From: a virus
IMG/VR virus record: IMGVR_UViG_3300005515_000037
Coordinates: 1 to 32,046 of that record
Strand: one strand, 5' to 3'
Length of the DNA stretch: 32,046 nucleotides
Below are positions 3,480-11,778 of the stretch, one piece after another; the first letter of the stretch is position 1, and each line of letters opens with the position of its first letter. The position numbers and the translations under genes are program-made. The notes below the pieces were generated by a model. The model saw only the letters and a list, made by a program, of their open reading frames with translations, ran no database searches and had not been told where the DNA came from.

Positions 3480-3510
3480 CCGGCGCACAGCCGCATCCGG
3501 CTGACCCACA

Positions 3511-3552: not shown

Positions 3553-5565
3553 TTGAAGATATTCGACATCGAGACGAACGGGCTGCTCGACGAGCTGACC
3601 GTCGTCCACACCCTGCACATCCTCGACAAGGCGACCGGCGAGCGCCGCCGTTACAATGACGGCTTCTTCGCCGACGGTTCGCCAGCTCCCCGCGACGGGA
3701 GCATCGTGGATGGCCTGATGGTGCTGGCTGAAGCGGACGAGGTCTGCGGCCACAACATCATCAAGTTCGACATCCCCGCGATCACCAAGGTCTACCCTTG
3801 GTTCAAGCTGAAGCCGAGCTGCGTGGTCCACGACACGATGGTCTACGCGCCGCTTATCTGGCCTCACATCAAGCAGATCGACGCTGACGCCATCAAGAAG
3901 GGCAAGCGGCCCTTCGACTTCGCCAAGCAGAAGCTGGTCGGCAAGCACTCGCTCAAGGCCTGGGGCATCCGCCTCGGCGTCCTAAAGGCCGACTACGAGG
4001 GCGAGTGGCACAGCTTCACCCAGGAGATGGAGGAGTACGCGGCCCAGGACCCGGTCACCACCGAGGCTCTCTGGGACAAGTGCGCCGAGAAGCAGTTCCA
4101 CTTCGAGGCCGTCCGCCTCGAACACGACGTCCAGTTCATCATCCATCTACAGGAGCGTTTCGGCTTCCTGTTCGACCGCGAGGCGGCGGAGGCCCTTGAG
4201 GGCATCCTGCGTGCCCGAAAGGCTGAGCTGGAGGACCAGCTCCGCGCCACCTTCAGGCCGTGGGTCGAGCCCGTCCGGTACAAGGGTCAGGCCGTCGTCG
4301 TCACCGCCGGTCGTCGCACGAAGGTGCGCCGCTGGGACGAGAACGGCGAGGAGTACATCGTCGAGTTCGCCAAGGGCGAGACCTACGAGAAGCTCAAGCT
4401 CGTCTCGTTCAACCCCGGCAGCCGTCAGCAAATCGCTGACCGGCTGAAGACGCTCTACGACTGGATACCCGTCGAGTTCACCGAGAAGGGGCACCCCAAG
4501 GTCGACGAAACGACGCTGGGCTCGCTGGATCACATCCCGGCGGCCCGGCTCCTTGTCGACTACCTGACGGTCGACAAGCGGATCGGTCAGCTCGCCGATG
4601 GCGACAACGCCTGGTTGAAGAAGATCGCCGCCGACGGGCGCATCCACGGCAAGGTCAGCACCCTCGGCGCGATCACCCGCCGGATGACGCACTGGGACCC
4701 GAACATGGCCCAGGTGCCGTCGCTGGTGAACGCCCGTGGCGTCGTCCCGTATGGCCGCGAGTGCCGCGCTCTCTTCATCGTCGCCGTGGGCATGATGCTC
4801 TGCGGCTGCGACGCCGAGGGCTTGGAGCTGCGCATGCTCGGCCACTACATGGCCAAGTACGACGGCGGCGCTTACGTCGACACGGTCGTCAACGGCGTCA
4901 AGGAAGACGGCACCGACGTCCACACGGTCAATCAGCGGCTGATCCGGCTCAACAGCCGCAACTCCGCGAAGACCTGGATTTACGCCTACCTCTACGGCGC
5001 TGGCCTGCTCAAGCTGGGCATGGTCATCTACGAAGACTTCACTGCTGCGCAGCGCGAGGCGTTCAACGCCAAGCATCCTGCAGGGCAGAAGAGGGAGCGG
5101 GCCATCGCCCTGCTCGGTAAGCGCGCCCGCATGCGCGTCGAGGAAGGCCTCCCGGCTCTCGGCGAGCTGCAGCGCAAGGTCCAGCGTCTGGCGAAGAGCG
5201 GCTTCCTGCCGACGGTCGACGGGTCGAAGCTGCGCGTCCGCTCAGCTCACTCGGCGCTGAACACCCTGCTGCAAGGCGGCGGTGCCATCGTCATGAAGAA
5301 GGCGCTCGTCATCCTCTTCAACCGGCTGCTCGAACAGGGGTGGGTCCCAGACCTAGTCACTGGTGAGCTGCGGCGCGGGGACGACGTGATGGGCTTCGTC
5401 GCGAACATTCACGACGAGTTCCAGATGGAGGTGCCGGAGCATCTCGCCGAGGAAATCGGCCAGATGGGCAAGGACGCGATCCGCGATGCGGGCGTGGCCT
5501 TCAACCTCCGCTGCCCGCTCGCTGGGTCCTTCGACAAGGGCCACAATTGGGCCGACAGCCACTGA
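3553..5565 (+). CDS. DNA polymerase, T7 gp5 family A with 3'-5' exonuclease
   Basis: Replicative polymerase, 670 aa (T7: 704). The proofreading exonuclease has D5/E7 (FDIETNG), D73 (HNIIKFD) and D166 (YAAQDPVTT). The polymerase domain has motif A with D420 (CDAEGLELR), motif B (RNSAKTWIYAYLYGAG) and motif C with H620-D621 (NIHDEFQ). It ends in NWADSH, close to the T7 C-terminus. The thumb carries a basic insertion before VSFNPGSRQQ at the place of the T7 thioredoxin-binding loop but shorter; whether it binds host thioredoxin is unknown. The start is TTG 3553, just before the exonuclease motif, with GGAG at 3542-3545. The stop overlaps the next start (TGATG). Confidence 0.97.
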   Translation: MKIFDIETNGLLDELTVVHTLHILDKATGERRRYNDGFFADGSPAPRDGSIVDGLMVLAEADEVCGHNIIKFDIPAITKVYPWFKLKPSCVVHDTMVYAPLIWPHIKQIDADAIKKGKRPFDFAKQKLVGKHSLKAWGIRLGVLKADYEGEWHSFTQEMEEYAAQDPVTTEALWDKCAEKQFHFEAVRLEHDVQFIIHLQERFGFLFDREAAEALEGILRARKAELEDQLRATFRPWVEPVRYKGQAVVVTAGRRTKVRRWDENGEEYIVEFAKGETYEKLKLVSFNPGSRQQIADRLKTLYDWIPVEFTEKGHPKVDETTLGSLDHIPAARLLVDYLTVDKRIGQLADGDNAWLKKIAADGRIHGKVSTLGAITRRMTHWDPNMAQVPSLVNARGVVPYGRECRALFIVAVGMMLCGCDAEGLELRMLGHYMAKYDGGAYVDTVVNGVKEDGTDVHTVNQRLIRLNSRNSAKTWIYAYLYGAGLLKLGMVIYEDFTAAQREAFNAKHPAGQKRERAIALLGKRARMRVEEGLPALGELQRKVQRLAKSGFLPTVDGSKLRVRSAHSALNTLLQGGGAIVMKKALVILFNRLLEQGWVPDLVTGELRRGDDVMGFVANIHDEFQMEVPEHLAEEIGQMGKDAIRDAGVAFNLRCPLAGSFDKGHNWADSH

Positions 5566-5915
5566 TGACCGACCGCGTGAAGCGGGTTCCGTTGTCACCA
5601 AGTCCCGAGAAGGCACTCCTTTCCGCCGCCCGATACCGGGCCAAGCGGAAGGGGGTGCCCTTCAACCTGACCTTCAGGGACATCGTGATCCCCGAGCGGT
5701 GCCCGATCCTAGGCATCGTGCTGCAGCGGGGCCTCGAAGGGGGCCTCGACAACTCCCCCTCGCTAGACCGCATCGTCCCCCGGCGCGGCTACGTGCGGGG
5801 CAACGTCCGCGTCATCTCGAACCGGGCGAACCGCATCAAGTCGGACAGCACCCCCGAGGAGCTGGCCCGCATCCTCACCTACGTCCTCGCCAACTCCCTT
5901 CAGGAGACCTCATGA
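5565..5915 (+). CDS. HNH-like (treble-clef) endonuclease
   Basis: A 116-residue basic protein beginning at ATG 5565, coupled to the polymerase stop (TGATG). The pattern CPILGI (C46), then SPSLDRIVPRRGYVRGNV, then ISNRANRIKSD matches a recurrent phage HNH/treble-clef nuclease family in which the LDRI...GYxxGNVxxIS segment is diagnostic. Some members of this group keep few metal-binding cysteines, and only one is seen here. T7 gene 5.3, next to its polymerase, is also HNH-like. A free-standing homing enzyme or a DNA-processing nuclease are both possible. The next start overlaps its stop as ATGA. Confidence 0.72.
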   Translation: MTDRVKRVPLSPSPEKALLSAARYRAKRKGVPFNLTFRDIVIPERCPILGIVLQRGLEGGLDNSPSLDRIVPRRGYVRGNVRVISNRANRIKSDSTPEELARILTYVLANSLQETS

Positions 5916-6157
5916 AGATCATCCAAGCCACCGGCTCGTGGCTGCGTCGGCTCCTTACGGGGAGCGACAACCACACGCCCGACATCGTCCGCATCCTGGG
6001 GGCCCTCATGGGCATCCAGTTCATCGTCAACTCGGGGTGGGCCCTGGTCCACCTTGAGCAGGCGTGGGACCCCACCGCCTACGGGACTGGTGCTGGTCTC
6101 GTGCTGGCTGCCATCGGCGCGGCGCTGGGCATGAAGGCGCTGACCGAGCCCAAGTGA
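5912..6157 (+). CDS. Small two-helix membrane protein (holin-like candidate)
   Basis: An 81-residue protein with SD AGGAG just before ATG 5912, which overlaps the HNH stop (ATGA). It has a basic amphipathic N-terminus (WLRRLLTG), a first membrane helix at about residues 25-47 (VRILGALMGIQFIVNSGWAL), a short linker with DPTAYG and a second helix GTGAGLVLAAIGAALGMKAL. The layout resembles a widespread group of small phage membrane proteins found beside endolysins. A holin role is plausible because the spanin pair lies 600 bases downstream, but two other small membrane proteins (29867, 29955) sit at the T7 holin position. Confidence 0.7.
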   Translation: MKIIQATGSWLRRLLTGSDNHTPDIVRILGALMGIQFIVNSGWALVHLEQAWDPTAYGTGAGLVLAAIGAALGMKALTEPK

Positions 6158-6339
6158 CCAAGCTCACCCATGACGTGATCGACGGGGATCGCGGCGGCTT
6201 TCGCTACCGCATCCTCGCCGGTCGCAAGGTGCTGCTGACTTCGGGCACGCTCCTCCTGTGGGAGGACGCCGACAAGCTCGGCAAGCACTTCGCCGCCGAC
6301 CCCACCGGCACCCTCGACTTCATCGAACGGAAACGCTGA
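6154..6339 (+). CDS. Small protein of unknown function (61 aa)
   Basis: GTG 6154 overlaps the preceding TGA (GTGA), giving a 61-residue product with YRILAGRKVLLTSGTLLL in its middle and FIERKR at the end. I do not recognise it. The exact stop/start overlaps on both sides (GTGA before, TGATG after) make it part of the coupled chain of small genes. There is no clear membrane helix or metal site; the middle looks like a beta hairpin. Confidence 0.6.
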   Translation: MTKLTHDVIDGDRGGFRYRILAGRKVLLTSGTLLLWEDADKLGKHFAADPTGTLDFIERKR

Positions 6340-6548
6340 TGCGCTCGTCATCGCTAGCAATCGACTTGGAGGACCAAGCGTCGGTCCTTCGGCGGATGGC
6401 CGCTGGCATTCGCAAATCCGGTCGGCCCATCGACGTGCCCTGGAAGGGCGGACGCAAGGACCTTCACCAGCTCACCAGCTCGGACGTGGAGGCCTTCGCG
6501 ACGGACCTCGAACGGGACGCTCATAAACTCAGGAGCCTCTACCAATGA
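6339..6548 (+). CDS. Small protein of unknown function (69 aa)
   Basis: ATG 6339 overlaps the previous stop (TGATG), and the next gene overlaps its stop (ATGA). The product has an acidic, helical N-terminus (LAIDLEDQASVLRRMAAGIRKS) and a helical C-terminus (VEAFATDLERDAHKLRSLY), with PWKGGRKD between. Two amphipathic helices of this kind suggest a small helical-bundle or dimerising protein, but no family is recognised. Confidence 0.6.
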   Translation: MRSSSLAIDLEDQASVLRRMAAGIRKSGRPIDVPWKGGRKDLHQLTSSDVEAFATDLERDAHKLRSLYQ

Positions 6549-6733
6549 GCGTGCAGCGCTACGTCTTTCGCTACCACGACGCGACCCACGGCCTCTACGA
6601 GAAGGAAGGCGGGTGGCGGACCAACGAGCTTCAGGAAGCCAAGCTGATCGGCTGGGGTTCCAAGCGGTTCGTGAACCCGCGCAACCCAAGGACCGACGGT
6701 GAGCTGGTCCCGGCGCGGATCGTCATCGCATGA
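6545..6733 (+). CDS. Small protein of unknown function (62 aa)
   Basis: ATG 6545 overlaps the previous stop as ATGA and is preceded by AGGAG at 6531-6535. The product is aromatic and basic (QRYVFRYHDATHGLYEKEGGWR, shortened here to its first part QRYVFRYHDATHG) with KLIGWGSKRFVNP further on and a hydrophobic end (ARIVIA). No known motif is seen. The next gene, the i-spanin, again overlaps by ATGA. Confidence 0.6.
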   Translation: MSVQRYVFRYHDATHGLYEKEGGWRTNELQEAKLIGWGSKRFVNPRNPRTDGELVPARIVIA

Positions 6734-7131
6734 TCCGCAACATCCTGATCGGCCTCGCGGCGCTCGCCGCCGTTCTCGCCGCCTACTGGTTCCTCACGGC
6801 CCCCTCGCGGGCCCGGAAGGAAACCGCCGTGGCCACCGCCACCGCCGCCACTGCCGAGGCCTCGAAGGCCGCCGCGCAGGACACCGTCAAGATCGTCGTC
6901 GACACCCAGGCCGCCCACGGTCGGATCGACGTCGTCACTCAAGGAAACCGCGATGCGATCCTCGCCGCTTCTGGAGCGACTGCTCCGGTCGATGTTGATC
7001 TTCATAACACCGGCCTTCGCGCTATCTGCCTGCGCAACGCATATCGTCTACAACCGTCCTGCCAGCGACTGCTCGACCCTGGTGCCGAAGTCGTTGGTGG
7101 ACCCGACGCCGGGGGCGCAGCTCCCCGCTGA
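6730..7131 (+). CDS. i-spanin (Rz-like inner-membrane lysis protein)
   Basis: A 133-residue protein with one N-terminal membrane helix (residues 3-24, ILIGLAALAAVLAAYWFLTA) followed by a charged, alanine-rich periplasmic helix. The C-terminal half overlaps the o-spanin reading frame by 179 bases in the +1 frame. Single-TM proteins that overlap a lipoprotein gene are the hallmark of two-component spanins, which fuse inner and outer membranes at the last step of lysis. Beyond about residue 100 the sequence is compositionally odd (PDAGGAAPR), as expected where it is constrained by the overlapping gene. Confidence 0.82.
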   Translation: MIRNILIGLAALAAVLAAYWFLTAPSRARKETAVATATAATAEASKAAAQDTVKIVVDTQAAHGRIDVVTQGNRDAILAASGATAPVDVDLHNTGLRAICLRNAYRLQPSCQRLLDPGAEVVGGPDAGGAAPR

Positions 7132-7297
7132 CGGCTCCGCCGGATCGTGGGTCGTCTTCGCCGACGCCCAGACCGGCCAGCTCGACAAGGCCAACGTCGA
7201 CAAGCGGGCCCAGTACGACATCGTCACGGCCTGCGAGAAGCGGGACCGCGAGGCTGAGAAGAAGGTCACCAAGAAGCCTTGGTGGGCGATCTTCTGA
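6953..7297 (+). CDS. o-spanin (Rz1-like outer-membrane lipoprotein)
   Basis: A 114-residue lipoprotein that begins inside the i-spanin gene. SD AAGGA (6943-6947) precedes ATG 6953. The signal has a basic n-region (LERLLRS), a hydrophobic core MLIFITPAFA and the lipobox LSAC, with lipidation expected at C27. The mature part has a proline/alanine-rich stretch (DPTPGAQLPADGS) and a charged end (EAEKKVTKKPWW). It is longer than lambda Rz1. It would bridge to the i-spanin across the periplasm. Its stop overlaps the next start (TGATG). Confidence 0.85.
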   Translation: MRSSPLLERLLRSMLIFITPAFALSACATHIVYNRPASDCSTLVPKSLVDPTPGAQLPADGSAGSWVVFADAQTGQLDKANVDKRAQYDIVTACEKRDREAEKKVTKKPWWAIF

Positions 7298-7488
7298 TGG
7301 ACGAAGCAATCAAGGAACTTCGCGCTCGCCTGACCGTGGTCGAGGACGAGCGGAAGCGCCTGCAGGCTGCGATCCGCGCCCTGCAGAGCGTTTGTCCGCA
7401 CGACTGGAAGGAGACCGGGTACGATCCCCGAGGCTCCTCCACGACCTACTACGAGTGCGCAAAGTGCCGGGCGGAGAAGACGACATGA
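7297..7488 (+). CDS. Small coiled-coil/zinc-ribbon protein
   Basis: A 63-residue protein coupled to the o-spanin stop (TGATG). Residues 3-30 form a charged heptad helix (IKELRARLTVVEDERKRLQ). The C-terminal half carries C33 and H35 (CPHDW) and C54 and C57 (YECAKCRAEK), a short zinc-ribbon arrangement seen in many small phage proteins. Zinc binding is inferred from spacing alone; partner and function are unknown. An upstream in-frame start at 7279 would run into the o-spanin end and has no better RBS. Confidence 0.65.
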   Translation: MDEAIKELRARLTVVEDERKRLQAAIRALQSVCPHDWKETGYDPRGSSTTYYECAKCRAEKTT

Positions 7489-7700
7489 TCCGCTTCGCTG
7501 TAATGATCCCACCTGACCAGGGCGCGTCACCGCAGTGGCTCGGCAACAACCGAGGCCACGATTACCGAACCGGAAAGCCAGGGTACGACCTTACGGACCA
7601 GCGTCACGCCCGGCTCTGGATCATGAAGGCTCATGCGACCCGCGCCGCCCGCGAGAACGGCGGAATCGTCGTGGAGGTGGCGCTGGGGTTCCCAGCGTGA
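7485..7700 (+). CDS. Small protein of unknown function (71 aa), last of the coupled chain
   Basis: ATG 7485 overlaps the zinc-ribbon stop as ATGA. The product is 71 residues (MIRFAVMIPPDQGASPQW at the start, GGIVVEVALGFPA at the end). No family is recognised and there is no membrane helix. It closes the run of overlapping small genes that begins after the polymerase; the 328-base stretch without a protein gene follows its stop. Confidence 0.6.
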   Translation: MIRFAVMIPPDQGASPQWLGNNRGHDYRTGKPGYDLTDQRHARLWIMKAHATRAARENGGIVVEVALGFPA

Positions 7701-7732
7701 CCTCACTCGGCTGGCTCTTGGGGCCAGAAGTC

Positions 7733-7831
7733 GCAGGAGACGGTCGGACAACGACGGGATTCGAACCCGCAACCTCTCGATCTCGGAACCGAGGCTCGAT
7801 CCAGTCGAGCTGCGCGGTCGCCGTCTCCTGC
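7733..7831 (-). repeat. 11-bp perfect inverted repeat flanking the tRNA-like gene
   Basis: GCAGGAGACGG at 7733-7743 is the exact reverse complement of CCGTCTCCTGC at 7821-7831. The arms lie just outside the predicted tRNA-like body (7746-7819), so in a minus-strand transcript the leader would pair with the trailer. This would clamp the cloverleaf inside a long stem, leaving only a few unpaired bases between clamp and acceptor stem. Confidence 0.85.
7746..7819 (-). tRNA. tRNA-like gene, possible tRNA-Arg(CCG), degenerate anticodon arm
   Basis: Read on the minus strand, the region gives a T arm GCGGG-TTCGAAT-CCCGT, a D arm GCTC-GACTGGATC-GAGC with the GG pair, and an acceptor GACCGCG/CGTTGTC with one mismatch and one G-U. 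The discriminator is C and no CCA is encoded. The anticodon arm is odd. The best stem, CTCGG/TCGAG, leaves an eight-base loop TTCCGAGA and no base 26; anticodon CCG (Arg) follows if TT are positions 32-33. Forcing a seven-base loop gives CGA but breaks the stem and lacks U33. It may be a working phage tRNA, a decaying one, or a tRNA-mimicking RNA. Confidence 0.55.
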
Positions 7832-7841
7832 AGACGAGCGG

Positions 7842-7870
7842 GTTATACGGACGATTCACGCCTCCGTCAA
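7842..7870 (-). promoter_or_regulatory. Sigma70-type promoter for the tRNA-like gene
   Basis: On the minus strand, TTGACG (7865-7870) and TATAAC (7842-7847) are separated by exactly 17 bases, each differing from consensus at one position. Transcription would begin near 7835, about 16 bases before the tRNA-like body and just outside the clamp repeat. It is the best host-type promoter I find in the window, and it points against all the flanking protein genes. Confidence 0.75.
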
Positions 7871-7894
7871 GAACTCGTGTAGTCACTTCGTCTA

Positions 7895-7934
7895 TTTCAA
7901 CCAAATGTTGAAACAATTTCAACTTCTGGTTGAA
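7895..7934. promoter_or_regulatory. Two tandem operator-like palindromes TTCAAC-N5-GTTGAA
   Basis: TTCAAC-N5-GTTGAA occurs at 7896-7912 (extended by one pair to 7895-7913) and again at 7918-7934. The six-base arms are identical in the two copies and the five-base centres differ. The centres are 22 bp apart, about two helical turns, which suits cooperative binding of a dimeric regulator. They lie 25-64 bp upstream of the minus-strand promoter and about 100 bp before the lipoprotein gene. A single half-site-like TTCAAC recurs at 8012-8017. No known regulator is identified. Confidence 0.65.
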
Positions 7935-7936
7935 CT

Positions 7937-7989
7937 ATATCCGGCTTTATTCCGGGTATTAACTTTATACCCGGCTTTATTCCGGATAT
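7937..7989. repeat. 53-bp nested palindrome array with 15-bp period
   Basis: Four 8-bp arms alternate with 7-bp spacers: ATATCCGG (7937-7944), CCGGGTAT (7952-7959), ATACCCGG (7967-7974), CCGGATAT (7982-7989). The outer two are perfect reverse complements, as are the inner two, and every arm contains CCGG, so several alternative hairpins are possible. Spacers one and three are identical (CTTTATT); the middle one is TAACTTT. It can also be read as two 30-bp imperfect direct repeats starting at 7937 and 7967. It may be a binding array, a replication origin element or a structured leader of the lipoprotein gene. Confidence 0.8.
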
Positions 7990-8028
7990 TAAACACTACA
8001 AACAATAGATATTCAACTGGAGCAAATC

Positions 8029-8253
8029 ATGAATCGTATCCTGATTGCGGCCACCTTGGCCGTCTCGACCCTCCTCAGCGCGTGCGGCGAGACCCTGCAG
8101 GACCAGTGCGCCAACGCCAAGAACCCCACCGAGTGCGTCCAGGTTGGGCAGGTGCCCGACGCCGCTGGTTACCTCCTCGCCGTCCTCGGCGGCGTGGGGG
8201 CGGCTCTTATCGGACTGGCGATCCTCGCCTGGGTCATCGACAGCACCGATTGA
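8029..8253 (+). CDS. Small lipoprotein with C-terminal membrane helix
   Basis: A 74-residue protein with SD GGAG (8019-8022) and ATG 8029. The signal peptide ILIAATLAVSTLLSAC ends in a lipobox LSAC with lipidation expected at C19. The short mature part has three more cysteines/charged patches (DQCANAKNPTECVQ), then a hydrophobic helix at about residues 47-69 (YLLAVLGGVGAALIGLAI). A lipid anchor plus a membrane helix is unusual. A second o-spanin, an envelope-altering or superinfection-exclusion protein are possible; none is shown. It follows the palindromic island and its stop overlaps the exonuclease start (TTGA). Confidence 0.72.
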   Translation: MNRILIAATLAVSTLLSACGETLQDQCANAKNPTECVQVGQVPDAAGYLLAVLGGVGAALIGLAILAWVIDSTD

Positions 8254-9083
8254 GCCGCACGCTTCTCATCGACGCCGACATCATCGCCTATCGGGCATCG
8301 GCGTCGAACGAGCAGCGGATCGACTGGGGCGACGGCGTTCAATCTTGCGCGGCTGACTTCGACGCCGCCAAGAAGCACGCCCGAGAACAGATCGACGCGC
8401 TCGTTTCCGACCTGTCCGCCACAGACTTCATCGTCTGCCTGTCGGACGACTTCAGCAACTTCCGGAAGGATTTCTACCCGGCCTACAAGGGCAACCGGGC
8501 CGACACCGTCCGACCTGAACACCTCTACGACGTGAAGGAGTGGCTTCAGGCCACCTATCCGACCCAGCTCCGGGCCCGCCTGGAGGCCGACGACGTGATG
8601 GGCATCCTGTCCACCGAACCCCACGCGGGGGACCGCATCATCGTCTCGCAGGACAAGGACATGCAGACTGTCCCCGGCCTGCTGTTCAACCCGAACCGGG
8701 ACAAGAAAGTCCGCACGATCGAGCCCGAGGCTGCGGAGCGCTTCATGCTCTGGCAGGCCATCTGCGGTGACCAGACCGACGGCTACCCTGGGTGCCCCGG
8801 CGCGGGCCCGAAGGCTGCGGACGAAGTCCTCGACCACCGATACTGGTTCCAGTGGGCCCGCGAGTTCAAGCGCGGGCCGCGCAAGGGCCAGATCGTGATG
8901 GAGTGGGATCACCGCGACGACGGCGACGAGACCCGCTGGCAGCGGATCGTGGCGCTCTACGAGAAGTCAGGCCTGACCGAGGACGACGCGGTCGTTCAGG
9001 TCAACCTCGCCCGCATCCTGAAGCACTCCGACATGGACGGCTCGCGGATCAGGCGTTGGACTCCTGCCGCGCTCGGCGGCTGA
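8250..9083 (+). CDS. 5'-3' exonuclease (T7 gp6-like, FEN/PIN fold)
   Basis: A 277-residue match to T7 gp6 (300 aa), which degrades host DNA, removes RNA primers and acts in recombination. Metal-binding acids are visible at D8 and D10 (LLIDADIIAYRA), in LEADDVMG, in VSQDKDM and in GDQTDGYPGCPG. YPAYKGNRAD matches the T7 YKANR region, and the C-terminal LARILKHSDMD matches its MARILRFNEY. The start is TTG 8250, overlapping the lipoprotein TGA, because it places the DAD motif at residue 8. The frame stays open far upstream through the non-coding island, but that part does not look like protein. Confidence 0.95.
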   Translation: MSRTLLIDADIIAYRASASNEQRIDWGDGVQSCAADFDAAKKHAREQIDALVSDLSATDFIVCLSDDFSNFRKDFYPAYKGNRADTVRPEHLYDVKEWLQATYPTQLRARLEADDVMGILSTEPHAGDRIIVSQDKDMQTVPGLLFNPNRDKKVRTIEPEAAERFMLWQAICGDQTDGYPGCPGAGPKAADEVLDHRYWFQWAREFKRGPRKGQIVMEWDHRDDGDETRWQRIVALYEKSGLTEDDAVVQVNLARILKHSDMDGSRIRRWTPAALGG

Positions 9084-9318
9084 GCCGCGCGGCGTCTACG
9101 GCGTACCATAGTGCGGTCGGAAGGCCGTACAGGAGGTAGCCTGACCACACGAACGGGCCGCCGTCGGCTGCCCCGAAGCCGTACAGCGTACCGGCCACAA
9201 CCAGTGCGCCACCATGAGAGATGGTCAGCCTTTCCGGGCTGGTCATCTTTCTGGTCGCCCAGAGGCCCAGCCTCGTCAGCAAGAACGAGCCGATCAGCGC
9301 CCCAACGATTTCCCCCAT
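9049..9318 (-). CDS. Antisense small membrane protein (three helices), moron-like
   Basis: The only protein gene on the minus strand that I support. ATG at 9316-9318 has a strong SD (GGGAGG) five bases upstream, and the 89-residue product has convincing membrane helices at residues 3-20 (EIVGALIGSFLLTRLGLW), 35-50 (HGGALVVAGTLYGFGA) and 54-74 (GPFVWSGYLLYGLPTALWYAV) with a basic tail RLSRRARQ. No plus-strand gene competes between 9084 and 9318. Its last 35 bases overlap the 3' end of the exonuclease gene tail to tail. No convincing promoter is seen upstream on its strand. The family is not recognised; an envelope-protective or host-modifying moron is inference. Confidence 0.75.
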   Translation of the reverse strand: MGEIVGALIGSFLLTRLGLWATRKMTSPERLTISHGGALVVAGTLYGFGAADGGPFVWSGYLLYGLPTALWYAVDAARLSRRARQESNA

Positions 9319-9424
9319 GCGTGCCTCCCAGTCGAAGGGGCCAATTAGTCAGGACTCTTGGAGCAGGGAAACCTTTTTTCAGGGTTACCTGACGGAGATC
9401 CTCTGCACCTCCTTTGGTTCCTTC
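9319..9424. other. Intergenic segment between the antisense gene and the terminator
   Basis: It contains a 6-bp inverted repeat GTCAGG (9349-9354)/CCTGAC (9387-9392 region) and two near-identical ten-mers, AGGGAAACCT (9365-9374) and AGGGTTACCT (9381-9390), split by a T run. A plus-strand stretch AATTAGTCAGGACTCTTGGAG (9343 onward) loosely recalls single-subunit phage polymerase promoters but has no second copy that I can find. No gene is supported. Confidence 0.5.
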
Positions 9425-9477
9425 AGGGGCCGCTCGCTGAACGCCCCGCGCGTCGGCTTGAGCGGCCCCTATTTTTT
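9425..9477 (+). terminator. Rho-independent terminator before the virion genes
   Basis: A perfect 11-bp stem (AGGGGCCGCTC 9425-9435 with 9460-9470) with a 24-base loop is followed by A and TTTTTT (9472-9477). No T run exists in the opposite direction, so it works on the plus strand. It separates the replication block from the structural genes. GGAG for the next gene starts three bases after the T run. Confidence 0.88.
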
Positions 9478-9496
9478 CGCGGAGCGCCACCCCTTC

Positions 9497-9688
9497 ATGA
9501 AATTCCCAGACTCAGCCGTCGCGCTGGTCGACGAGCTGAACCGTCTGGTCCCCGAGCGGGTGCCGGAAGCCGGGGAAAGCATGGAGTCGATCCAGCGGCA
9601 GGCGGGCAAGCGTGAGCTTGTCCTGTTCCTCAATCATTGGCGGGACGCAGCTAAGCGCGATGTCGTCCGCAAGGAGCGGCGGCGCTGA
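9497..9688 (+). CDS. Small acidic/basic helical protein preceding portal operon (63 aa)
   Basis: A 63-residue product with SD GGAG at 9481-9484, twelve bases before ATG 9497. It starts FPDSAVALVDELNRLVPERV and ends with LFLNHWRDAAKRDVVRKERRR (last residues basic). Similar short proteins with an FLxxWR segment occur just before the portal gene in several podoviruses, but their role is not known to me. Its stop overlaps the next ATG (TGATG), coupling it to the virion operon. An upstream extension of the frame runs through the terminator and is rejected. Confidence 0.65.
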   Translation: MKFPDSAVALVDELNRLVPERVPEAGESMESIQRQAGKRELVLFLNHWRDAAKRDVVRKERRR

Positions 9689-10002
9689 TGTGCATCGTCA
9701 AGACCCCCAAAGTTTCCACGACGGACGCGACGGCGAAGACGCCTGACCCCGCCATCATCCGCAACCCGTACCTCGACGGCGTTGATCCAGTTACCAAGGC
9801 TCTGCGCAAGGGCCGCTCCAGCCTGCGCATCGAGCGCGCGGGGAGTGGGGCCGCTTCGGTGGCTCCCCCCGCGACCGCTCCGACACCTTATACCTTCGGC
9901 GCGGCGCTGCCTCCTGTGCAGCCCGTCATCCAGAAGATCACGCCCGTTGGGGGCGGGGGTGTCGGCTCGGGCGGTCGGATCAGTAAGTCGACGGCCTACT
10001 AA
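9688..10002 (+). CDS. Virion-assembly-associated small protein (T7 gp6.7/7.3 position)
   Basis: A 104-residue protein starting MCIVKTPKV, a podovirus-style N-terminus, with GRSSLRIERAGSG in the middle and a proline/glycine-rich second half (PPATAPTPYTFGAALPP, GGGGVGSGG). By position just before the portal gene and by the RSSLRI-GSG element, it resembles the small virion/tail assembly proteins encoded there in T7-like phages (gp6.7, gp7.3). The similarity is weak and low-complexity, so the role is inferred. Confidence 0.6.
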   Translation: MCIVKTPKVSTTDATAKTPDPAIIRNPYLDGVDPVTKALRKGRSSLRIERAGSGAASVAPPATAPTPYTFGAALPPVQPVIQKITPVGGGGVGSGGRISKSTAY

Positions 10003-10011
10003 GGGACCTCA

Positions 10012-11586
10012 GTGGCCTCCACAGATACGAAGCTGGAGCCCGTCGCCAAGGCGCGGTACACCCAGCTCTCGACCTCGCGCCAAACGGCGCTGGAGCGTGC
10101 GCGCTCCAACTCTGCCCTGACGATCCCCGGCCTAATTCCCGAGGACGGTCAGGACTCCAACAGCACCTTCTCGCAGCCCTACCAGTCCCTCGGGGCCCGC
10201 TGCGTGAACAACCTCGCTGCTTGGCTTCTCGTCACCCTGTTCCCACCCGACCAGCACTTCGCGCGTCTCTCGATCCACGAGGACACCGCGCGCGAGCTTG
10301 GGGAGAACCTCTCGGGCGCTGAAGAAGCGCTCAACCGGATCAGCGCCAAGGCGCACCTCCTAGTCGAGACCTCGGCTTCCCGCCCGGTCTTCATGGAGGC
10401 GCTTCGCCATCTGGTCGTCGCAGGCAATGCCCTGGTCTACTTCCCGCTCGACGGCGGGCCTCCCCGGATGTTCCGGATGGACCAATACGTCGTCCTGCGG
10501 GACGAGCGCGGCGGCCTGATCGAAGGGGTCATCAAGGAGCGGGTCTACCCCTCCGCCCTCGCCGAGGATGTTCGCGCGGCCTGCAAGGTCGAGGTCGAGC
10601 CCGGCAAGGAGAACGAGAAGCTCGTCGACCTGTACACGCACATCAAGCGCAACGGCGACGACACGGTCCACTATCAGGAAATCAACGGCATCATCGTGCC
10701 CGGTTCCGAGGGCAAGGCTCCTCGGGAAAGCGCGGGCTGGATGGCGTTGCGCTGGCAGGCGATCCCCGGCTCCGATTGGGGACGCGCGCATGTCTCCGAG
10801 TACGTCGGCGACCTGATGTCCCTGGAGGACCTCTCCAAGGCGATCATCCAGTTCGCTGCGGTGGCCTCACGGATCGTCAATATCGTCGACCCCAATGCGA
10901 TGATCGACATCGAAGAGCTCAATGCTGCGGAGACCGGCGATTACGTCACCGGCTACGTCGACAAGATCAAGGCGCTGCAGCTCGACAAGAGCATGGACTT
11001 CTCGGTCGCCAACACCGTGGCCGACCGGCTTGAGATGCGCCTGTCGCATGCCTTCATGCTCCAATCGGGCACCGTTCGGAACGCCGAGCGCGTCACTGCC
11101 GAGGAAATTCGGGCAATGGCGCAGGAGCTGGAGAACGTCCTCGGTGGCGTCTACACCGTCCTCTCGGCGGAGTTCCAGCTCCCCTTGATCCGCCGCATCC
11201 TCTACATCCTGATCCGCAACGGCGAAGCGCCGGAGCTGCCCAAGACGGTCCAGCCGACCGTCGTCACGGGCTTCGAGGCAATGGGCCGCAACGCGGCTGC
11301 CAACAAGCTGAAGATGTGGATGGCGGAGATGTCGGCAGCCTTCGGGCCCGCCGTCATCGCGCAGATCACGGACCCCTCCGAGGTCGGTAAGCGCTTCGCT
11401 TCCGCCTTCGGGATCGAGGACGTGGGCTCGCTTATCAAGGGTGCCGATCAGGTCGCCCAGGAGAGGCAGGCCGAGATGGCGAACCAAGCCGCCCAGGCCG
11501 CTGCCCCGCAGATCGCCAAGGGCGTCGCCGACAGCATGAACCAACCCCAGGCCGCCCCGGAGCAGGGCGCGGTCCCACCCATGTAA
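10012..11586 (+). CDS. Portal / head-tail connector protein (T7 gp8-like)
   Basis: Forms the dodecameric ring through which DNA enters the procapsid and to which the tail attaches. The 524 aa (T7: 536) align throughout: ALTIPGLIPEDG, QSLGARCVNNLAAWL, RHLVVAGNALVYFP, YVGDLMSLEDLSKAI, ETGDYVTG, RLSHAFMLQSG, ERVTAEEIRAMAQELE and LGGVYTVLSAEFQLPL all have direct T7 counterparts. The C-terminus is alanine/glutamine-rich. GTG 10012 is preceded by AAGGGA at 10001-10006 and no ATG near it gives a complete N-terminus. Confidence 0.97.
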   Translation: MASTDTKLEPVAKARYTQLSTSRQTALERARSNSALTIPGLIPEDGQDSNSTFSQPYQSLGARCVNNLAAWLLVTLFPPDQHFARLSIHEDTARELGENLSGAEEALNRISAKAHLLVETSASRPVFMEALRHLVVAGNALVYFPLDGGPPRMFRMDQYVVLRDERGGLIEGVIKERVYPSALAEDVRAACKVEVEPGKENEKLVDLYTHIKRNGDDTVHYQEINGIIVPGSEGKAPRESAGWMALRWQAIPGSDWGRAHVSEYVGDLMSLEDLSKAIIQFAAVASRIVNIVDPNAMIDIEELNAAETGDYVTGYVDKIKALQLDKSMDFSVANTVADRLEMRLSHAFMLQSGTVRNAERVTAEEIRAMAQELENVLGGVYTVLSAEFQLPLIRRILYILIRNGEAPELPKTVQPTVVTGFEAMGRNAAANKLKMWMAEMSAAFGPAVIAQITDPSEVGKRFASAFGIEDVGSLIKGADQVAQERQAEMANQAAQAAAPQIAKGVADSMNQPQAAPEQGAVPPM

Positions 11587-11595
11587 GGAGCCGCA

Positions 11596-11778
11596 ATGGC
11601 TGACACGAAGACCCCGAAGGCAGCCCCGGCGGCTGCCCCTGCGACCACGAGCATGACCGTCGAACACGCCAAGTTCGAGCTGGTCGACAACACTGCCGCT
11701 CCGGCGGTGGTCGAGACTCCGCCCTCGGAGGAGACCGTCGAGCTGCTCGCCGGGTTCTCGCAGGTGAACTACCTCTAA
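11596..11778 (+). CDS. Small alanine/proline-rich protein between portal and scaffold (60 aa)
   Basis: ATG 11596 has an excellent SD (AAGGAG, six-base spacer). The 60-residue product begins with a low-complexity ADTKTPKAAPAAAPATT stretch and ends in VELLAGFSQVNYL. It is not recognised. The acidic, A/P-rich composition resembles the N-terminus of the following scaffold protein, so an assembly-related role or an origin by partial duplication is possible but unproven. The scaffold start follows its stop by one base. Confidence 0.65.
   Translation: MADTKTPKAAPAAAPATTSMTVEHAKFELVDNTAAPAVVETPPSEETVELLAGFSQVNYL

What the first reader, a model, noticed from the sequence alone, without database searches (positions are those of the whole stretch)
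7937..7989. 53-bp nested palindrome array in an AT-rich island
Arms ATATCCGG, CCGGGTAT, ATACCCGG, CCGGATAT alternate with 7-bp spacers at a strict 15-bp period. The outer and inner pairs are perfect reverse complements, two spacers are identical, and neighbouring arms share CCGG, so at least two mutually exclusive folds exist. Chance is very unlikely in a GC-rich genome. It could be a replication origin element, a cruciform, a regulator array or an RNA switch ahead of the lipoprotein and exonuclease genes.
Basis: seen in the sequence. Interest (0 to 1): 0.75.

Follow-up and report, generated by a model that had tools for sequence, protein, structure and literature searches.

The report
Leftward promoter-operator array before tRNA-like gene
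The odd repeated palindrome is real, but it is best read as two copies of a symmetric protein-binding site sitting inside back-to-back promoters that appear to drive a small tRNA-like RNA gene on the opposite strand, all within a piece of DNA that this T7-like phage has and its close relatives lack.

Summary
Arms, spacers and coordinates are as described. The array is a tandem direct duplication of one dyad (25/27 identical, 30 bp apart). Duplicating a palindrome gives nested arms and a 15-bp period automatically, so the "two folds" are mostly a by-product. A second, unrelated tandem dyad lies beside it (7895-7935). Both sit in the window's main AT-rich island, inside a 515-bp segment that a relative with 97%-identical flanks lacks. 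No recognisable relative turned up in IMG/VR or 84,980 genomes.

In both strands of the window, the only five strong sigma70-like -35/-10 pairs are all leftward, all in this island, and all with 17-bp spacers. Each CCGG dyad is exactly centred in one such spacer. The array points at a 106-nt RNA gene (7835-7730, minus): a tRNA-Arg-like cloverleaf with an 8-nt anticodon loop, sealed by an 11-bp leader/trailer helix whose 5' end falls at the predicted start of the best promoter (TTGACG-17-TATAAC).

Best reading: a moron-like cassette whose promoter/operator array controls leftward transcription of that RNA. Origin, RNA-switch and "ahead of lipoprotein/exonuclease" readings are weakened. The binding protein, the RNA's role and any in vivo activity are unproven.

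The parts
7937..7989 (.). array B: tandem CCGG dyads B1 (7937-7959) and B2 (7967-7989), 30 bp centre to centre; direct repeat 7936-7962 / 7966-7992
7895..7935 (.). array A: tandem dyads TTTCAAC-N5-GTTGAAA (7895-7913) and TTTCAAC-N5-GTTGAAC (7917-7935), 22 bp centre to centre
   Evidence: the only other nested palindrome in the window
7842..7870 (-). best sigma70-like promoter TTGACG-17-TATAAC, predicted start about 7835
   Evidence: TTGACGG also fits the Caulobacter RpoD -35 consensus TTGaCgS (PMC8144410)
7934..7962 (-). promoter-like TTAATA-17-TATAGT whose 17-bp spacer is centred on dyad B1
7964..7992 (-). promoter-like TTAATA-17-TATAAA whose 17-bp spacer is centred on dyad B2
7894..7922 (-). 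promoter-like TTGAAA-17-TGAAAT made from arms of array A (weak -10)
7988..8016 (-). promoter-like TTGAAT-17-TTTAAT
7730..7835 (-). predicted 106-nt structured RNA: cloverleaf 7746-7819 closed by a perfect 11-bp leader/trailer helix (7821-7831 with 7733-7743)
   Evidence: ARAGORN; RF00005 23.7 bits, below gathering 29; folds; inverted repeat I3; closest tRNAs Arg(CCG)/Trp
7841..8065 (.). main AT-rich island of the window (up to 72% AT in 60 bp, in a 66% GC genome)
7499..8013 (.). lineage-specific segment: relative L002 has 275 unrelated bases here between 97%-identical flanks
8029..8253 (+). small lipoprotein-like gene; present in relatives that lack the island
8250..9083 (+). 5'-3' exonuclease gene (TTG start overlapping the lipoprotein stop)

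Best explanation
The palindromes act as DNA. They are tandem operator-like dyads built into a row of leftward sigma70-type promoters, in a cassette that the phage acquired at a variable spot between the DNA polymerase and exonuclease genes. Host RNA polymerase would start leftward, most strongly at TTGACG-17-TATAAC, and make a 106-nt tRNA-Arg-like RNA whose 5' and 3' ends pair. A dimeric regulator binding the CCGG dyads, each centred in a 17-bp promoter spacer, would block or tune the upstream promoters; the TTTCAAC dyads would be a second input. Shown by sequence: the duplicated dyads, the promoter matches with their strand and spacer bias, the centring, the predicted RNA fold, and absence of the segment in a close relative. 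Inferred: that the promoters fire, that a protein binds, that the RNA is made, and that they form one regulatory unit.
For: The five -35/-10 pairs scoring at least 8.6 are the only ones in the window on either strand. All are on the minus strand in this island with 17-bp spacers, and a spacer-blind scan of the island (12-22) still gives only 17 on that strand. Island shuffles average 0.3 sites per strand, and none of 2,000 reach five. The 27-bp repeat unit spans nearly a whole -35 to -10 element, and both dyad centres (7948, 7978) equal the spacer centres. B spacers are identical in direct orientation (CTTTATT), as duplication of a site predicts and a selected long hairpin does not. The RNA predicted from the best promoter begins where its closing helix begins. 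The whole unit is missing from L002 with intact flanks.
Against: All promoter evidence is consensus matching, with weights approximated from the E. coli consensus; the host is unknown. AT-rich DNA attracts such matches, although shuffles of the same island do not reproduce the pattern. Two of the five sites share one duplicated unit, and the 7922 site has a poor -10. AT islands of relatives, a rough positive control, gave only zero or one such site each. No regulator gene was identified, and the record is probably an incomplete genome. No independent relative carries the element, so nothing can be tested by conservation or covariation. The nested arms pair slightly better than duplication alone would need.
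Confidence: 0.5

Rival explanations
1. RNA element: in rightward read-through mRNA the two arrays fold into double-stem hairpins in the 5' region of the lipoprotein-exonuclease message and act as a processing, stability or attenuation element.
For: The island RNA folds far better than shuffles (z -7.05). The nested fold of B is favoured over two local hairpins (-23.8 vs -13.5 kcal/mol). The two unit differences keep both nested pairs perfect. The inner hairpin scores as terminator-like.
Against: Any DNA palindrome gives the same fold. The 7x7 internal loop is a direct, not complementary, repeat. Minus-strand RNA folds slightly better than plus. The phage's own terminators near 3500, 9450 and 13880 are GC hairpins followed by T-runs and look different. 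Relatives carry the same genes without it.
Confidence: 0.2
2. DNA-structure site: cruciform or folded single strand used in replication or in site-specific recombination that brought in the cassette. Array A has an attC-like layout (YYYYAAC-N5-GTTRRRR-N3-YYYYAAC-N5-GTTRRRY).
For: It is the window's only extended AT-rich island with nested dyads; single-strand DNA folds are stable (-13.0 and -11.1 kcal/mol); it sits in a segment absent from a relative.
Against: The attC resemblance is a recalled layout only; it lacks the asymmetric extrahelical base and array B shows no AAC/GTT cores. Absent from L002 and other relatives, so not a group-wide origin. No copies in IMG/VR or 84,980 genomes.
Confidence: 0.1
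3. By-product: chance palindromic AT-rich DNA was tandemly duplicated by replication slippage and made more perfect by template switching; it has no function and came along with the cassette.
For: One duplication explains most of the regularity; the element is confined to one lineage; quasi-palindrome correction would explain the symmetric differences.
Against: Two unrelated tandem dyads lie side by side, and an all-leftward 17-bp-spacer promoter series coincides with them.
Confidence: 0.15

Closest known systems
Repressor operators placed in the -35/-10 spacer of bacterial promoters (TetR-type arrangement; general knowledge)
   Same: 15-23 bp dyad centred between the promoter hexamers, tandem copies on neighbouring promoters
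   Different: no regulator identified; CCGG-N7-CCGG dyad matches no operator known to me; two dyad types in one island
Phage moron or auxiliary cassette with its own host promoter
   Same: extra segment between conserved phage genes, absent from a near-identical relative, different base composition, own sigma70-like promoter, opposite to phage transcription
   Different: the product seems to be a structured RNA rather than a protein; the segment also replaces a small ORF
Phage-encoded tRNAs with altered anticodon loops (PMC10264068) and tRNA-dependent lysogeny (PMC10865867)
   Same: tRNA-Arg-like cloverleaf with an extra anticodon-loop base; integrase-bearing relatives
   Different: leader and trailer are sealed by 11 bp, one acceptor mismatch, no encoded CCA; the presence of an integrase in this phage is unknown
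Bacterial Y RNAs (YrlA; described in PMC8394870)
   Same: 90-150 nt, long stem of 5' and 3' ends plus a tRNA-like domain
   Different: no YrlA match in Rfam and only a chance-level Deinococcus_Y_RNA match (17.3 bits, gathering 80)

Membership tests
sigma70-type promoter array | -35 and -10 hexamers 16-18 bp apart, more than composition predicts | tested here: met
   five minus-strand sites, all 17 bp; island shuffles average 0.3 per strand, none of 2,000 reach five
sigma70-type promoter array | transcription starts mapped downstream | not testable with these tools
   no transcriptome for this uncultured phage
Operator-regulated promoter | dyad-symmetric site at a fixed place relative to the promoter | tested here: met
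   dyad centres 7948 and 7978 equal the spacer centres of the 7962 and 7992 promoters
Operator-regulated promoter | a cognate DNA-binding protein | not tested
   a sample of proteins, mostly around the site, was scanned and none was a regulator; the record is probably an incomplete genome
Conserved replication origin of this phage group | present in close relatives | tested here: not met
   absent from L002 (97% flanks) and from L092-L110; only the near-identical contig L111 carries it
RNA regulatory structure | compensatory changes across relatives | tested here: inconclusive
   no independent homologue found; one within-element symmetric change only
Intrinsic terminator | GC stem followed directly by a U-run | tested here: inconclusive
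   inner hairpin is followed by CTTTATT; the phage's clear terminators have long T-runs
tRNA gene | covariance model score at or above the Rfam gathering score | tested here: not met
   RF00005 23.7 bits vs 29; 8-nt anticodon loop
YrlA / bacterial Y RNA | match to a Y RNA family model | tested here: not met
   only RF01053 at 17.3 bits, E 1.5
attP in a host tRNA | long exact identity to a host tRNA 3' half | tested here: inconclusive
   398 genomes of one phylum: best 81% over 56 nt or 96% over 27 nt; host unknown
Integron attC | R and L boxes with asymmetric extrahelical base in the folded strand | tested here: not met
   array A inner arms pair perfectly and array B lacks AAC/GTT cores

The most novel reading that the evidence does not exclude
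A phage-borne RNA module: a sealed, tRNA-Arg(CCG)-like decoy RNA with an extra anticodon-loop base, made from its own regulated promoter array, which protects the phage or its lysogen against tRNA-cleaving defences or replaces a disrupted host tRNA.
Probability: 0.12. Interest if true: 0.7.

Novelty: new member of a known kind. Interest (0 to 1): 0.37.

Why it matters
It shows that a striking nested palindrome can be the ordinary consequence of duplicating one symmetric binding site, and it redirects attention to what that array probably controls: an unusual sealed tRNA-like RNA in a T7-like phage, transcribed against the phage's own genes. If the RNA is real it would be a compact test of why phages carry odd tRNA genes.

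Tried and rejected
Replication origin: rejected as a group-wide feature, since close relatives lack it. Mobile palindromic repeat: no copies found; the three genome hits appear to lie in uvrA-like and nusA-like coding sequence (my reading of the flanks), and the single-dyad IMG/VR hits look like chance matches. Terminator: weak next to the phage's own terminators. Coding repeat: the ORF 7905-9083 reads through the island (LYPALFRVLT LYPALFRILN), but there is no ribosome-binding site before 7905 and it overlaps the lipoprotein gene in another frame. attP: no long identity to tRNAs in 398 genomes. T7-like promoter motif shared with relatives: the GAAAAAAATGCAGGG motif seen in AT-rich islands of three relatives is absent from the window. 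One search used a mistyped pattern and is void. Rfam at gathering threshold: nothing.

Full report
WHAT IS THERE. The 53-bp element is exactly as described. A scan for nested exact arms finds two places in the window, this one and a neighbour at 7896-7934. Arms of 8 bp never arise in 20 whole-window shuffles, and arms of 7 bp never arise in 2,000 shuffles of the island. Both lie in the window's main AT-rich island, between an opposite-strand tRNA-like gene and a small lipoprotein gene.

WHY IT IS NESTED. Array B is a direct tandem repeat: 7936-7962 and 7966-7992 are identical at 25 of 27 positions, including the non-symmetric spacer CTTTATT and the flanking TAA. If a palindrome is duplicated, arm 1 is complementary to arms 2 and 4 and arm 3 likewise, so nesting, a 15-bp period and alternative folds follow automatically. 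Array A is built the same way with a 22-bp period, although its two units are less alike in direct orientation (13 of 19) than inverted (16 of 19). What is left over for B is small: the two differences between the B units fall on one symmetric arm position and leave both nested pairs perfect. About 1% of random pairs of arm substitutions would do this, or one in three if only that position tolerates change. Template-switch correction of a quasi-palindrome is another possible cause (inference).

RELATIVES. The window is an IMG/VR record of an Autographiviridae-type phage; the nearest named phages are Caulobacter phage S2B, 'Mycobacterium phage jiawei' and Mesorhizobium phage Lo5R7ANS, all with an integrase gene. 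L002 matches the window at 97% on both sides, 4968-7498 and 8148-11753 with a weaker stretch from 8014, but has 275 unrelated bases in place of 7499-8013. L092 and L093 carry the lipoprotein, and L003-L010 the exonuclease, with no palindrome. The only other carrier found is a contig identical to the window over 8.4 kb (L048/L111, also seen as L012, L090, L091). Pattern searches of IMG/VR and of 84,980 genomes found only what look like chance matches. The element is therefore confined, as far as these collections show, to one lineage.

PROMOTERS. A -35/-10 weight scan (weights approximated from the E. coli sigma70 consensus) of both strands of all 32 kb gives five sites at or above 8.6. All five are in this island, all point left, and all have 17-bp spacers; in the island without any spacer preference (12-22 allowed) the leftward sites are still all 17. 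Shuffles of the island average 0.3 sites per strand and none of 2,000 gives five. Two of the five are the B units themselves: TTAATA-[17]-TATAAA and TTAATA-[17]-TATAGT, with the CCGG dyad exactly centred in the spacer. The strongest, TTGACG-17-TATAAC at 7870-7842, also fits the Caulobacter RpoD -35 consensus (PMC8144410). The plus strand of the island has nothing above 7.3 with a normal spacer. Caveats: two of the sites come from one duplication, one has a poor -10, and AT islands of relatives gave zero or one such site each.

THE RNA GENE. ARAGORN finds a cloverleaf at 7746-7819 on the minus strand with an 8-nt anticodon loop. Rfam's tRNA model gives 23.7 bits, below its cut-off of 29, with one mismatch in the acceptor as aligned. 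The nearest tRNAs among matches in 398 genomes are mostly Arg(CCG) and Trp, without long identity. Leader and trailer form a perfect 11-bp helix; folding from the predicted start at 7835 pairs from the first base. The layout resembles a bacterial Y RNA as described in PMC8394870, but no Y RNA family model matches beyond chance.

MECHANISM. The most economical account is a moron-like cassette with host-type promoters reading leftward into the tRNA-like RNA, whose upstream promoters carry dyads placed to bind a regulator between -35 and -10. Steps shown by sequence: duplication, promoter bias, centring, predicted RNA fold, and absence in L002. Steps inferred: transcription, regulator binding, and a shared function. 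The promoters inside array B would start leftward transcripts within it, so the full hairpin would not be in those RNAs, which favours action as DNA. The RNA-hairpin rival remains open because rightward read-through would include the whole fold, and the nested fold is the most stable one.

VERDICT. Its strangeness is largely explained by tandem duplication of a dyad. The likely role is regulatory DNA for the opposite strand rather than an origin or a switch ahead of lipoprotein and exonuclease. The remaining interest lies in the sealed tRNA-like RNA and in the unidentified binding protein.

Noticed in passing
window 7730-7835, minus strand: Sealed tRNA-Arg-like RNA gene with an 8-nt anticodon loop and an 11-bp leader/trailer helix; Y-RNA-like layout but no Y-RNA family match.
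   Followed up: partly
window 7499-8013 versus L002 2533-2807: Variable spot between DNA polymerase and exonuclease: near-identical phages carry unrelated small ORFs or this cassette.
   Followed up: partly
window 6730-7297: Overlapping pair of ORFs: the inner one (6953-7297) weakly matches an Rz-like spanin family; the outer one (6730-7131) could be its partner.
   Followed up: no
L106 15126-15197: In a related phage, a 5'-truncated tRNA-Trp lies beside a T-run terminator in what appears to be the post-capsid region; it looks like an attP made from a host tRNA 3' half.
   Followed up: no
L119 41486, L102 8499, L105 15049: Motif GAAAAAAATGCAGGG shared by AT-rich islands of three relatives; possible phage RNA polymerase promoter or packaging-related site; absent from the window.
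   Followed up: no
window 9049-9318, minus strand: A membrane-protein-like ORF (weak Transgly_assoc match) opposite to the phage genes, just after the exonuclease.
   Followed up: no
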